Assembly (NCBI GenBank): GCA_902583295.1
Contig: CACHUY010000001.1
Location: forward strand, 1-64,000
Direction: 5' to 3'
DNA: 64,000 nucleotides
Source: an uncultured Pelagibacteraceae bacterium
GTDB taxonomy: Bacteria > Pseudomonadota > Alphaproteobacteria > Pelagibacterales > Pelagibacteraceae
Positions 6,015 through 10,193 of the stretch are shown piece by piece (within the stretch, counting starts at the first letter, position 1; every line of letters starts with the position of its first letter). The notes beneath the pieces were generated by a model. That model had not been told where the DNA came from and ran no database searches. It worked only from the letters and a program-made list of their open reading frames with translations. The position numbers were made by a program, and so were the translations under genes.

Positions 6015-6100
6015 TGGTGCCCTCGGCCAGACTCGAACTGGCACTCCGCAAGCGGCAAGGATTTTAAGTCCTTTGTGTCTACCAATTTCACCACGAGGGC
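6015..6100 (-). tRNA. tRNA-Leu(TAA), attachment-site target of adjacent elements
   Basis: GCCCTCGTGGTGAAATTGGTAGACAC...GGACTTAAAATCC...CCAGTTCGAGTCTGGCCGAGGGCACCA; complete cloverleaf with CCA. Confidence 0.95.
6060..6100 (-). repeat. att copy 1: 5' half of tRNA-Leu(TAA)
   Basis: gattttaagtcctttgtgtctaccaatttcaccacgagggc, present again at 7601 and 9945. Confidence 0.9.
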
Positions 6101-6116
6101 TCCTAGATTTTGCATT

Positions 6117-6144
6117 GTTATATCTGTATTTATTTATAACTCAA
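6117..6144 (-). promoter_or_regulatory. Promoter of intact tRNA-Leu (TTGAGT-16 bp-TATAAC)
   Basis: Reverse strand -35-like TTGAGT and -10-like TATAAC; same position relative to the tRNA 5' end as in the displaced copy at 10001-10028. Confidence 0.55.
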
Positions 6145-6385
6145 GTCACCAAACAACTACAAGTATAAGTTTGTGTGGCCGGTGTGTGACTATGATTGAT
6201 CGAGGGGTCCCAAATGGAAGTCAAAATTAGCATTAATTATCGACCCCTATCCACCTCTTTTAAAAAAACCTTTAGATTATATTGCCTACTATACTTGGAT
6301 ATAAAGATAAGGTCCTAACAAATACTTTTTCATAAGTACCTAACCTAAAAAAATATTATAAAATTTTTATTTTTTAATTTAAAGA

Positions 6386-7309
6386 TTATTGAATTTCATT
6401 AGCTAAATGTGTCCAATAATTTTCTACATTTGGTTGATGAGAAATTCTATTTTTATCAAAAGCTAATAAACTTTTTTTAGCTCCAAAAATATATTTAATA
6501 CCAAATTTTATCTCTTTAGCATCTGGCGAATCAGATTCCGTTACTCCTGGTCTATAATCTATCAACTCGTAACTTGCAGTTAATGTAATTGGATAGTCTG
6601 AAAGTAAATATTCCATATTCACTAAATGAGAATTAGCCTCAGCCATATCATTAGCATTTTGATTATTATCTCTTCTGCCCTCTACTACATTGTAAGCATA
6701 ACCAGCTCTTAGATTTTCATCAAAATATTTTTGCAAATAATAATTATAATTAGTATTTGGATCATTAGTTGTAAAACCCTCAGTGTAATAATCATAAGCT
6801 CTTACTTCTCCAAATGATCCACCAATTCTTATTTTTTTATTATCAAAAAATTTGTTTGCTTGCACACCATAGAACCAAAAATGAGCATCATCATCCCGAT
6901 CATCTCCTCGATCCCTGTTTTCAGAATAATTTACGAATAATCCAAAATTTAGATGATTAAAATTTTTTTGTATGTTGATTTTATTGGATAATATGTGTCC
7001 AGTTGCATCATTATCATTCTTTTCCATTTGATAAGCCTCATAAGATAAATCGTACTGTCCTAATATATTCCCATCTAGAAAATTATTACTTAAAGATAGT
7101 TGTACTCTAGTGAATGGTTGGCCAGGATTTTTATTATCAACTTGACCATCATACTTAGTTTCTGCTTGTTCAACATGCAAATAGCCTTTAAGTAGGTTGT
7201 TTGCAGTTGCGTCAGTGAATGAGGATAATGAAGAAACTAGAAAAGTTATTAATAATAAAATAATATTTAATCTAAAATTATACGAAAATATTTTTTTTTC
7301 ACTGTGCAT
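6386..7309 (-). CDS. Putative outer-membrane beta-barrel/porin-like protein
   Basis: N-terminal hydrophobic signal; alternating amphipathic strands (YDLSYEAYQM, HLNFGLFVNYSENR, LTASYELIDYRPG, EIKFGIKYIFG). Confidence 0.6.
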   Translation of the reverse strand: MHSEKKIFSYNFRLNIILLLITFLVSSLSSFTDATANNLLKGYLHVEQAETKYDGQVDNKNPGQPFTRVQLSLSNNFLDGNILGQYDLSYEAYQMEKNDNDATGHILSNKINIQKNFNHLNFGLFVNYSENRDRGDDRDDDAHFWFYGVQANKFFDNKKIRIGGSFGEVRAYDYYTEGFTTNDPNTNYNYYLQKYFDENLRAGYAYNVVEGRRDNNQNANDMAEANSHLVNMEYLLSDYPITLTASYELIDYRPGVTESDSPDAKEIKFGIKYIFGAKKSLLAFDKNRISHQPNVENYWTHLANEIQ

Positions 7310-7600
7310 TAAAAATTAATAAAATAAATAAATTATTATTAAAATAAAATAAACTGCGACAATTTATTAGTCTTCTAAAGCTGAATCAATTATCCATTCT
7401 GAATGAATGACCTTTATGCTTACTCTTTATTTAAAATATCTTTATCTGTGAACCTAATACTGTGTGGCTTATGTGTGACTTTCTTCTTCTTTTTATTTGT
7501 TTCCATACATAAATAAGTATGCAAACCTAAAAGTCTTTTAGTATCAATAGTTCTGGGTAGCTGTGGGCTGTTGAGACTAGAATTAAATTAACTCTATTTA

Positions 7601-7641
7601 GATTTTAAGTCCTTTTTGTCTACCAATTTCACCACGAGGGC
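7601..7641 (-). repeat. att copy 2: displaced tRNA-Leu 5' half, 1 mismatch in 41
   Basis: gattttaagtcctttttgtctaccaatttcaccacgagggc. Confidence 0.92.
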
Positions 7642-7688: not shown

Positions 7689-7710
7689 GTTTAATAAGTA
7701 AATTTTTTTT

Positions 7711-7745
7711 ATTTTATCTCTCTGCTTACTAGTCTCTTACTAGTT
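7711..7745 (+). repeat. 35-bp direct repeat copy A flanking the MTase/nuclease pair
   Basis: attttatctctctgcttactagtctcttactagtt; 33/35 identical to 9787-9821. Confidence 0.9.
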
Positions 7746-7764
7746 ATCCTATAAAATCCTATAA

Positions 7765-8850
7765 CTAATCCTCTATAAAATGTTTATTTCCTTTTCGGGA
7801 ATTGCAAGGTCTACAAAGAAGTTGCGCGTTAGATATAACTGTTCCCGGTGGTCCTTTGCTCCAAGGAACTTTATGATCTACAGTTAATTCGTTAGAAAGA
7901 AATTTATTATTACATTTTTCACATTTATACTTTCCATCGATTATTGTTTTATTACCTAAAAGTTCTTTTTTATCATCTTTGGTAAACAATCTTTTAGGAT
8001 CAGTTCTAATATTATTTACAGCAGCTAGAATTATATCTTCAATTTCTTTAGCTTGATCGGTAATTTTTGCTTCATCACTCTTTAAATATTTTTGAACCGC
8101 ATTATTAATCTTGTCTTTTTTACTTTGCCATATTGTCTTATCATTTAAATACTTTTGTGCTAAAGAAAAAAAAATATCAAACTTATTAAATTTTTCAAAA
8201 ATAGCTGCTACAAAGTTAATATATTTGCTTACTTTTCTATGATCGGGTTGAAAAGTTTTTTTTTGATTTTCATTTACATATTTCTGAACTGATGATTCTT
8301 TGTTATCAGTTCCTTTTAAAATTAAAATTTTCTTTAAAACTTCATACTGATTTTTTCCTCTTTGGTTTGCTCCTAAAATTTTTGATATATTTCTATCATC
8401 CTTAACATATTGACTTAGTTCAGAGAGATAACGCCCATGAAAGAGCCCATTTAGAACCTCATATTTATTTAATGCTACTCCTAAAACATTTATACGTCTA
8501 AAAATTTCTCGTTTTAATTTATCTGGACCTTTACAAATAATATCAACTAGTTCTGTATCATCAATTTTTTTTTGTATGCTTGATGAAGTTTCTTGCCATA
8601 ATTTATTGTTATATTTAATATCATTTTCTTTAAATCTTTTAATTGCATGAATTCTTTGTTTTCCATCTAAAACTTCAAGTTTACGATTTCTATTTTTCCA
8701 AAAATAAAAAGCAGGTAAAGGAATTTTTTTTACAATACTATCTATAACTAGCGATTGTTTTTCATCATTATAAACTATATCTCTTTGCAACTCTATATCG
8801 CTTATAATAATTCCGTCTCTAATTTTTCTATATAATTCTTTTACTTTCAC
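7765..8850 (-). CDS. DUF262 (GmrS/ParB-like) domain protein with C-terminal HNH endonuclease domain
   Basis: DIELQRDIVYNDEKQSLVIDSI...LPAFYFW...LEVLDGKQRIHAIKRF (DUF262); CEKCNNKF...LTVDHKVPWSKG...NAQLLCRPCNSRKGNK (HNH with zinc-binding CxxC pairs). Confidence 0.85.
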   Translation of the reverse strand: MKVKELYRKIRDGIIISDIELQRDIVYNDEKQSLVIDSIVKKIPLPAFYFWKNRNRKLEVLDGKQRIHAIKRFKENDIKYNNKLWQETSSSIQKKIDDTELVDIICKGPDKLKREIFRRINVLGVALNKYEVLNGLFHGRYLSELSQYVKDDRNISKILGANQRGKNQYEVLKKILILKGTDNKESSVQKYVNENQKKTFQPDHRKVSKYINFVAAIFEKFNKFDIFFSLAQKYLNDKTIWQSKKDKINNAVQKYLKSDEAKITDQAKEIEDIILAAVNNIRTDPKRLFTKDDKKELLGNKTIIDGKYKCEKCNNKFLSNELTVDHKVPWSKGPPGTVISNAQLLCRPCNSRKGNKHFIED

Positions 8851-8859
8851 AAATATTTT

Positions 8860-9771
8860 CTATATTTTTTTGTTCTTAATTAACAATCTTTCAAATGGAG
8901 CTTTATCTGGTTTTCCATTTTTTTCAGTCCACAACATTGCTTTGTCACCGCTCCATCTCTTAGTTTTTTTTGCTTGAACGCCTGTGCCAAGAAGTTCAAA
9001 CTGATATGGATTAAATTTTCTTAAAAATGTTATAGGAACACCCATAATTCCTTTAAAATTATATGGAATATTTTTAACTTTATCTACATTAATTCCATTA
9101 AAATTATAAAACTTTTGGTATTTTTTATTTGAGTAACTTTCAGTAAGTATCAAGTTTCTCCTTGAATAGTCTAATTTTAAGTTGGTATACCATAAACATG
9201 CACGTGCGTTTGATCCTTCTGGAGTATTTGCCATAAAAGTCTTACCAGATCTGGACACAAAACCAGACAATTGTTTTGCATATCCTATGCTTATTTTTTT
9301 TTTTAAAAAATGAGCAATAATATTTTTGTAACTGAGTGCAAATGTTGGGCCTATTACTAAAAAATTTTTTTTATTTTTAACTAAAGTATTAATAAATTCT
9401 TCAAATATACTAAAAGGTGGATTAGTTATTATTAAATCATACTTAGAATAATCAATATCTTCAAATTTTGTTCCTTTCTTTTTTTTTGGATCATATCCAC
9501 TAGCTGTGATACTTTTAATTTTATAATCTTCCGCATGTGAAATTAAAAACTTTAAAAAATTACAATTAGTAGATGATAATTTTTTTTTAATTTTGCCTTT
9601 AAGATAAAAAAATTTTTCATTATAACTAGCGTCCCAATCACAAGGGCATAATATTCTTTTTCCTTTTAGTTGATCTTTATAATTCGGTAATTCTGCAGCT
9701 ATATCAGGCCACATCGTAATCCACTCATCATTTTTTGCTTTGATTGCTTTTAATAATTTTGGGTTAGCCAT
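8860..9771 (-). CDS. EcoRI-family adenine-specific DNA methyltransferase
   Basis: KAKNDEWITMWPDIAAEL..., LCPCDWD, YDLIITNPPFSIFEEFI (NPPF catalytic motif), ISIGYAKQLSGFV, resembling M.EcoRI as I recall it. Confidence 0.82.
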   Translation of the reverse strand: MANPKLLKAIKAKNDEWITMWPDIAAELPNYKDQLKGKRILCPCDWDASYNEKFFYLKGKIKKKLSSTNCNFLKFLISHAEDYKIKSITASGYDPKKKKGTKFEDIDYSKYDLIITNPPFSIFEEFINTLVKNKKNFLVIGPTFALSYKNIIAHFLKKKISIGYAKQLSGFVSRSGKTFMANTPEGSNARACLWYTNLKLDYSRRNLILTESYSNKKYQKFYNFNGINVDKVKNIPYNFKGIMGVPITFLRKFNPYQFELLGTGVQAKKTKRWSGDKAMLWTEKNGKPDKAPFERLLIKNKKI

Positions 9772-9786
9772 TTAAGATATTATATT

Positions 9787-9821
9787 ATTTTATCTCTCTA
9801 CTTACTAGTTTCTTACTAGTT
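9787..9821 (+). repeat. 35-bp direct repeat copy B
   Basis: attttatctctctacttactagtttcttactagtt. Confidence 0.9.
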
Positions 9822-9944
9822 TAATGAAATTTATTATTCATATTTTCCAATAAAAATAATCTATCAATTTCTAAGGTTATGGGATTATAAGGGATTTAGA
9901 CTATTAGGGACTATTAGAGACTCTGAAATTTCTCAACTCAAACT

Positions 9945-9984
9945 ATTTTAAGTCCTTTGTGTCTACCAATTTCACCACGAGGGC
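9945..9984 (-). repeat. att copy 3: displaced tRNA-Leu 5' half, 40/40 identical
   Basis: attttaagtcctttgtgtctaccaatttcaccacgagggc. Confidence 0.93.
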
Positions 9985-10028: not shown

Positions 10029-10193
10029 TGCATTTATCTTATTCAAGAATTATCGGTGTCTAACTGGTGTCTAACCCAAAATTTATAATATACTATTTGT
10101 AATTTATTTTATGGATTAAATACTCTTTGTAATAAATTTGTAATTTAATTTTATAAAATTTAATGTATTGTAATTTTAAAAAGAATTAAAAAT

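What the first reader, a model, noticed from the sequence alone, without database searches (positions are those of the whole stretch)
7765..9771. Compact R-M/defence-like pair: EcoRI-family N6A methyltransferase plus DUF262-HNH nuclease
The MTase (9771-8860; ITNPPF motif and M.EcoRI-like blocks) is followed 9 bp later by one protein fusing an N-terminal DUF262 domain (DGKQR) to a C-terminal zinc-type HNH. DUF262 plus HNH-type nucleases occur in GmrSD and SspE-type modification-sensing systems. An EcoRI-family MTase as partner suggests either a Type II-like R-M in which DUF262 replaces a classical REase, or nucleotide/modification-gated restriction. MTase-first order fits host protection on entry. 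This is the best candidate in the window for an undescribed system.
Basis: partly seen in the sequence, partly recalled or inferred. Interest (0 to 1): 0.8.

Follow-up and report, generated by a model that had tools for sequence, protein, structure and literature searches.

The report
Restriction-modification pair in SAR11 tRNA cassette
Two genes that probably mark a bacterium's own DNA and cut foreign DNA form a known kind of defence pair; here they ride in an integrase-less 2.3-kb cassette inserted at a tRNA gene of an ocean SAR11 bacterium, bounded by matched repeats that also flank dozens of other cassettes at the same site.

Summary
The pair is real at the stated coordinates: an EcoRI-family adenine MTase (9771-8860) and, 9 nt on, a DUF262-HNH protein (8850-7765). 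It is a recurring two-gene unit. In 300 genomes of the genus the two families occur in the same 4 genomes, adjacent each time. In 75 of 75 testable loci from many phyla the MTase lies directly upstream. PADLOC already has a Type II REase model spanning this nuclease, so as a restriction system it is a divergent member of a known kind.

The less expected result is the carrier. The window is a SAR11-type chromosome. The pair is the only cargo of a cassette between 5'-half copies of tRNA-Leu(UAA); removing both tandem cassettes in silico restores an intact tRNA. 72 of 207 genus genomes with this site hold two or more copies. Most cassettes carry varied cargo (several R-M systems) and no integrase. 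Most have a period-11 repeat pair near each end; it differs between cassettes but matches within one (40/43 exact; 0/20,000 shuffles). Satellites with a tyrosine integrase carry similar repeats, partly inside the integrase gene. They are the likely helpers; movement itself is inferred.

The parts
8860..9771 (-). EcoRI-family N6-adenine DNA methyltransferase, 303 aa, motif ITNPPF
   Evidence: Pfam PF13651 2.5e-57; PADLOC MTase_II PDLC03297 2.3e-53; alignment A1
7765..8850 (-). DUF262 (GmrSD_N) + C-terminal zinc HNH nuclease, 361 aa, GTG start
   Evidence: Pfam PF03235 1e-13, PF01844 2.7e-12; PADLOC REase_II PDLC03418 over 38-372 of 372; conserved D325 H326 N341 N350
9946..9984 (-). outer copy of the tRNA-Leu(UAA) 5' half, left boundary of the R-M cassette; identical to the intact gene over 39 nt
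7603..7641 (-). middle copy of the tRNA-Leu 5' half (38/39), right boundary of the R-M cassette and left boundary of the second unit
9895..9922 (-). left-end ~10-bp direct repeats (AGTCTCTAATAGTCCCTAATAGTC), similar in position and form in many other cassettes and in the satellites; putative integrase arm-type sites
9780..9821 (-). left copy of the 42-nt direct repeat: ACTAGTAAG twice (period 11; 9801-9820) then AGAGAGATAAAATAA, ending 8 nt before the MTase ATG
7704..7745 (-). right copy of the 42-nt direct repeat: ACTAGTAAG twice (7725-7744), 103 nt before the next tRNA half
7746..7762 (-). right-end motif ATAGGATTTTATAGGAT, conserved in most cassettes; a rough inverted counterpart (AATCCC..TATAATCCC) is in the left end
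6015..6100 (-). intact tRNA-Leu(UAA), the target gene
   Evidence: ARAGORN
6386..7309 (-). 307-aa ORF without Pfam match, cargo of a second tandem unit (half copy 7603-7641 to the intact tRNA)
7461..7480 (-). left repeat of the second unit (AGTCACACATAAGCCACACA)
6172..6191 (-). right repeat of the second unit (AGTCACACACCGGCCACACA)
10055..10075 (-). period-11 pair GTTAGACACC upstream of the outer tRNA half; same type as right ends of elements in L139 and L141; probably the right end of an older element

Best explanation
A divergent Type II-like restriction-modification pair carried as the sole cargo of a non-autonomous, site-specific mobile cassette. R-M step (inferred from family): the EcoRI-type MTase methylates adenine in an unknown target; the DUF262-HNH protein cuts DNA lacking that mark, with the DUF262/ParB-Srx domain binding a nucleotide or sensing DNA and the HNH domain cutting. 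Carrier step (anatomy shown, movement inferred): the cassette consists of a tRNA-Leu 5' half, a left arm of short repeats and a period-11 repeat pair, the two genes, and a right arm with the same pair. It has no integrase. It would integrate and excise at the anticodon region of tRNA-Leu by using the tyrosine integrase of an autonomous satellite of the same family, with the element-specific repeat pairs acting as arm-type sites that match cassette to helper.
For: R-M: family matches; same 4/300 genomes; MTase upstream in 75/75 testable loci; on several small plasmids and phages; HNH residues conserved. The four SAR11 copies look like separate acquisitions: three are closer to copies from outside SAR11 (60-75%) than to each other, and the window copy is 26-30% from all. 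Carrier: tRNA-half boundaries; joined flanks give a perfect tRNA-Leu; 72 of 207 genus genomes with the site have >=2 exact copies (my count from the table); conserved ends with unrelated cargo; left and right repeat match in 40/43 exactly, versus 7% of cross pairs, 0/20,000 shuffles. Helper: satellites L130, L142, L079, L094, L097, L099 have a 545-563-aa tyrosine-integrase-type protein and the period-11 pair at about -103; the same or a nearly identical 9-mer recurs inside the integrase gene. L097 (contig ends overlap, so circular) has ACTAGTAAT against ACTAGTAAG here. G188 has exactly this pair beside another cargo. In G262 two cassettes and a satellite sit in tandem at the tRNA. The host's one detected PF00589 gene (321 aa, on another contig) resembles in size the single copy seen in most relatives, presumably Xer.
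Against: No activity data. The window proteins are divergent: DGKQR for DGQQR, a missing GKGLFG loop, altered MTase positions, so one or both may be weak or inactive. The structure model is of middling quality (pLDDT 70, pTM 0.47) and fold matches are weak (best BrxU, E 0.009). Excision or transfer is not observed. The nearest helper repeat differs by one base from the window's, and no helper was found in this incomplete (85%) genome. T7-like pelagiphage contigs share the att but not the repeat, so another integrase could serve. The same sampled genomes recur across searches, and relatedness among cassettes was not modelled in the shuffle test.
Confidence: 0.72

Rival explanations
1. Modification-gated defence: the MTase marks DNA and the DUF262-HNH protein reads a modification (its own mark on self DNA as licence, or foreign modified DNA as trigger), as SspE reads phosphorothioate or GmrSD/BrxU read modified cytosine.
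For: DUF262 relatives with known activity (GmrSD, BrxU, SspE) are modification-sensing NTPase-nucleases (PMC4619093, PMC8565348, PMC10952713); weak fold match to BrxU and ParB-type CTPases.
Against: The C-terminal domain is a zinc HNH (PF01844), not DUF1524; the invariant partner is a sequence-type MTase of the EcoRI family, one of which sits beside an EcoRI REase gene in a Helicobacter phage; PADLOC files the family as Type II.
Confidence: 0.2
2. The cassettes are mobilised by T7-like pelagiphage integrases or moved by homologous recombination between tRNA halves; the repeat pairs are promoter or regulatory elements of the cargo.
For: Pelagiphage-type contigs carry an integrase gene directly before the same tRNA-Leu half; a pelagiphage att of 46 bp in tRNA-Leu is published (PMC3861242); the left repeat pair ends just before the first gene.
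Against: Pelagiphage-type att regions lack the period-11 pair, while the satellites have it at the same distance; a regulatory role for the first gene does not explain a matching copy at the right end, or copies inside satellite integrase genes.
Confidence: 0.2
3. A fixed relic: a decayed R-M pair in an immobile tRNA-linked island.
For: Sequence divergence of both proteins; no helper found in the host; middle tRNA half has one mismatch.
Against: Both ORFs are intact with catalytic residues kept; both end repeats are perfect copies of ACTAGTAAG; outer tRNA half is identical over 39 nt.
Confidence: 0.15

Closest known systems
Type II R-M, EcoRI-family MTase with PADLOC REase_II PDLC03418 (DUF262-HNH)
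   Same: Same two families, same order, adjacent on one strand; found across many phyla, plasmids and phages.
   Different: Window copy is divergent (26-30% identity), has DGKQR and a shortened N-terminal region; activity and target unknown.
GmrSD / BrxU Type IV enzymes and SspE
   Same: N-terminal DUF262 with a DGxQR motif and a C-terminal His-Me-type nuclease; weak fold match to BrxU.
   Different: Nuclease domain is PF01844 zinc HNH, not DUF1524; protein is 361 aa against 587 for BrxU; fixed MTase partner.
Cis-mobilizable elements and Dehalococcoides ssrA islands without integration module
   Same: Integrase-less islands in tandem at one RNA gene, bounded by direct repeats of that gene (PMC3146451).
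   Different: Here cassettes are mostly 1-5 kb, use the 5' half of tRNA-Leu, and have element-specific matched repeat pairs at both ends; the presumed helper is a tyrosine-integrase satellite, not a serine recombinase island.
Marine satellites: tycheposons, VEIMEs, PICMIs
   Same: Small marine integrative elements, tycheposons at tRNA genes with a tyrosine recombinase, carrying cargo (PMC10872708, PMC11389934, PMC10803314).
   Different: The R-M cassette has no recombinase or replication gene; tycheposons are described as 4-200 kb. The 7.7-10 kb helpers found here may belong among these.
CALINs (integron cassette arrays without integrase)
   Same: Arrays of short gene cassettes that depend on an integrase supplied from elsewhere (PMC11389934).
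   Different: Boundaries are tRNA halves with arm repeats rather than attC sites; one to three cassettes per array.

Membership tests
Type II R-M (EcoRI-type MTase + DUF262-HNH REase) | MTase of PF13651 above cut-off | tested here: met
   195.2 bits against 26.4
Type II R-M (EcoRI-type MTase + DUF262-HNH REase) | Partner matches the catalogued REase model over its length | tested here: met
   PDLC03418 at 38-372 of 372, 1.3e-25; weaker than other copies
Type II R-M (EcoRI-type MTase + DUF262-HNH REase) | Conserved adjacency of the two genes | tested here: met
   75/75 testable loci; 4/4 in genus
Type II R-M (EcoRI-type MTase + DUF262-HNH REase) | Site-specific cleavage blocked by the cognate methylation | not testable with these tools
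   needs biochemistry or methylation calling
GmrSD (Type IV) | DUF262 domain | tested here: met
   52.3 bits against 33.2
GmrSD (Type IV) | DUF1524 C-terminal domain | tested here: not met
   PF01844 and PF14279 instead; no DUF1524 match
GmrSD (Type IV) | Cleaves modified DNA | not testable with these tools
   none
Cis-mobilizable element (CIME) | att-type repeats at both ends | tested here: met
   tRNA-Leu halves
Cis-mobilizable element (CIME) | no recombinase or transfer gene | tested here: met
   only the two R-M genes lie between the boundaries
Cis-mobilizable element (CIME) | tandem with an element that encodes the recombinase | tested here: inconclusive
   not in this genome; seen in G262
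Cis-mobilizable element (CIME) | excision and transfer | not testable with these tools
   no reads or cultures
Phage satellite / tycheposon | own integrase or replication module | tested here: not met
   absent from the cassette; integrase present in L079, L094, L142
Integron / CALIN | attC hairpin sites | not tested
   boundaries are tRNA halves; no attC search was made

The most novel reading that the evidence does not exclude
SAR11 chromosomes carry an integron-like gene-exchange system at tRNA-Leu: arrays of integrase-less one-operon cassettes, each bounded by a tRNA half and by arm repeats whose sequence differs between cassettes but matches within one, moved in trans by satellite integrases that carry the same repeats in their own coding sequence. 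Restriction-modification pairs such as this one are among the exchanged cargo.
Probability: 0.45. Interest if true: 0.82.

Novelty: new variant of a known kind. Interest (0 to 1): 0.62.

Why it matters
SAR11 bacteria are among the most abundant cells in the ocean and have streamlined genomes; how they gain and lose phage defence is poorly known. A single tRNA site at which short cassettes, several of them restriction systems, come and go offers a concrete route. The matched repeats give a testable rule for which helper moves which cassette, and the ends give a signature for finding cassettes in metagenomes. For the R-M pair itself, the survey shows a widespread DUF262-HNH restriction family for which no functional study turned up in the held library.

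Tried and rejected
Close relatives of either window protein in IMG/VR: none. Solved structures by sequence: only a weak HNH match, and a weak DUF262 (BrxU) match with the family profile. Papers joining DUF262 with 'EcoRI methyl': none held; the SAR11 island passages read did not describe the cassettes. Viral contig L224, the only viral hit for the exact 20-nt repeat, is an unrelated phage without the tRNA half. The G157 and G297 copies of the pair are not next to a tRNA in the stretches fetched, so the tRNA-Leu site is not the only home of this R-M family. The idea that T7-like pelagiphages are the direct helpers was set lower because they lack the repeat pair.

Full report
Observation. The first is an EcoRI-family adenine MTase (PF13651, 2.5e-57) and the second fuses DUF262 (PF03235, 1e-13) to a zinc HNH (PF01844, 2.7e-12). 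The gap is 9 nt and the nuclease starts with GTG. Catalytic HNH residues D325, H326, N341 and N350 and the zinc cysteines are present; the DUF262 motif reads DGKQR where at least 95% of 32 relatives have DGQQR, and an N-terminal loop (GKGLFG) is missing.

Recurrence. Among 300 genomes of the genus, PF13651 is found in G000, G027, G157 and G297 only, and PF03235 in the same four only, adjacent in each. A scan of GTDB species genomes gave at least 402 relatives of the nuclease; of the best 80, 75 have the MTase directly upstream on the same strand and the other five have too little upstream sequence to tell. The pair also occurs on plasmids and phages of Bacillota, Actinomycetota and others. PADLOC has a REase_II model for this nuclease family. 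So the R-M reading is well supported as a family, and it is not an uncatalogued architecture. The four SAR11 copies look like separate acquisitions: the nucleases of G027, G157 and G297 are 75%, 60% and 73% identical to copies from outside SAR11, more than to each other, while the window copy is 26-30% from everything.

How the pair likely works. By family, the MTase methylates adenine at a specific site and the DUF262-HNH protein cuts DNA without that mark. The DUF262 part has the ParB/Srx-type fold in relatives (PMC4619093; weak fold matches to BrxU and ParB), so nucleotide gating is plausible. The model of the window protein is only moderate (pLDDT 70, pTM 0.47). Nothing here shows activity, and modification-gated action stays open.

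The carrier. Repeats flanking the pair led to a tRNA. The window has one intact tRNA-Leu(UAA) at 6015-6100 and two copies of its 5' half, at 9946-9984 and 7603-7641. The R-M pair lies alone between the two halves (2,343-nt unit); a second unit with a 307-aa ORF lies between the middle half and the intact tRNA. Joining the outer half to the 3' half gives a perfect tRNA-Leu. In this genus 207 of 300 sampled genomes contain the 33-nt signature and, by my count of the table, 72 have two or three exact copies. The sites of 28 relatives and 32 further multi-copy sites were read. Cassettes are mostly 1-5 kb with cargo mostly on the tRNA strand and no integrase. Cargo includes a second EcoRI-type pair (G027), Type IIG systems (G258, G166), a Type IV-like helicase-nuclease (G198), a cytosine MTase (G278), an HsdM/HsdS-like pair (G034) and an Mrr-type nuclease (G031), besides metabolic, pilin-like and unknown genes.

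The ends. Aligned ends are alike despite unrelated cargo: short ~10-bp repeats near the left core, a motif like ATAGGATTTTATAGGAT at the right, and a pair of 9-mers with an 11-bp period at about +125 and at -103, followed by GAGATAAA. The 9-mer varies between cassettes but is the same at both ends of one: of 43 cassettes with a pair at both ends, 40 match exactly over 8 nt and the rest 7 of 8, against 7% exact among cross pairs; no shuffle of 20,000 came near (maximum 12). A few cassettes lack a clear pair. The window cassette has ACTAGTAAG twice at each end (7725-7744, 9801-9820) and nowhere else in the window. Among 349 genus genomes only G188, apart from this one, has the same 20-nt pair, also beside tRNA-Leu but with another cargo. 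The cassettes are related to one another in part, so the shuffle figure is not a strict probability.

Likely helpers. Autonomous elements of about 7.7-10 kb occupy the same site in G228, G180 and G262 and occur as viral contigs, of which L079 and L097 have repeated ends as circles would. They encode a 530-563-aa protein with a phage-integrase domain and, in L142, a primase-type protein. They have the period-11 pair before the tRNA half, and the same or a nearly identical 9-mer inside the first codons of the integrase gene. L097 has ACTAGTAAT, one base from the window's repeat. Pelagiphage-type contigs (integrase gene, att, then a large gene that I take for a T7-like RNA polymerase) share the tRNA half, as published for an HTVC019P-like phage (PMC3861242), but not the pair. 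I infer that the pairs are arm-type integrase sites and that the satellites move the cassettes in trans or in tandem. That paired arm sites occur in phage attP regions is general knowledge, not tested here.

Comparison. What it works like: integrase-less islands at an RNA gene such as those of Dehalococcoides (PMC3146451), and integron arrays without integrase (PMC11389934). It does not meet the definition of a satellite, since it has no recombinase. I found no description of these SAR11 cassettes in the papers searched, but the library lacks most subscription journals, so the claim of novelty is limited.

Verdict. R-M pair: a divergent new member of a known kind. Carrier: a new variant of a known kind with an unusual matched-repeat feature. 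Weak points are the absence of any activity or excision data, draft assemblies, and an 85% complete host genome.

Noticed in passing
window 6015-7641: A second tandem unit with its own tRNA half and a different matched repeat (AGTCACACA..GCCACACA) carries a 307-aa ORF with no Pfam match; its left end resembles the G262 satellite (L239).
   Followed up: partly
window 10055-10075: A period-11 pair GTTAGACACC upstream of the outer tRNA half suggests the right end of an older element whose left end was not found.
   Followed up: no
L079, L097, L130, L142, L239: Satellite-like elements at tRNA-Leu whose integrase gene contains, in its first codons, the same or nearly the same 9-mer as the element's right arm.
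   Followed up: partly
L111:8445-8780, L129 (110-aa ORF at 1745-2077 in tRNA orientation), L078:1045-1377: A 110-111-aa protein recurs beside different R-M systems in SAR11; the L111 copy has no Pfam match.
   Followed up: no
L118 and L133 (G262, G064): Cassettes with arrays of many genes beginning with a type IV pilin-like methylation motif (GFTLIELLVVVAIIGILAAVG).
   Followed up: no
L224:1767-1786: An unrelated phage contig has the same 20-nt repeat pair upstream of a small gene, close to an integrase-like gene and a tRNA-Asn.
   Followed up: no
L052, L059, L061, L112 and others: In many cassettes the sequence after the tRNA half (GCCGAGGG) can pair with its start (CCCTCG), as an acceptor stem would.
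   Followed up: no
L013, L015: In some plasmids a third gene (helix-turn-helix regulator or HNH protein) follows the MTase and DUF262-HNH pair.
   Followed up: no
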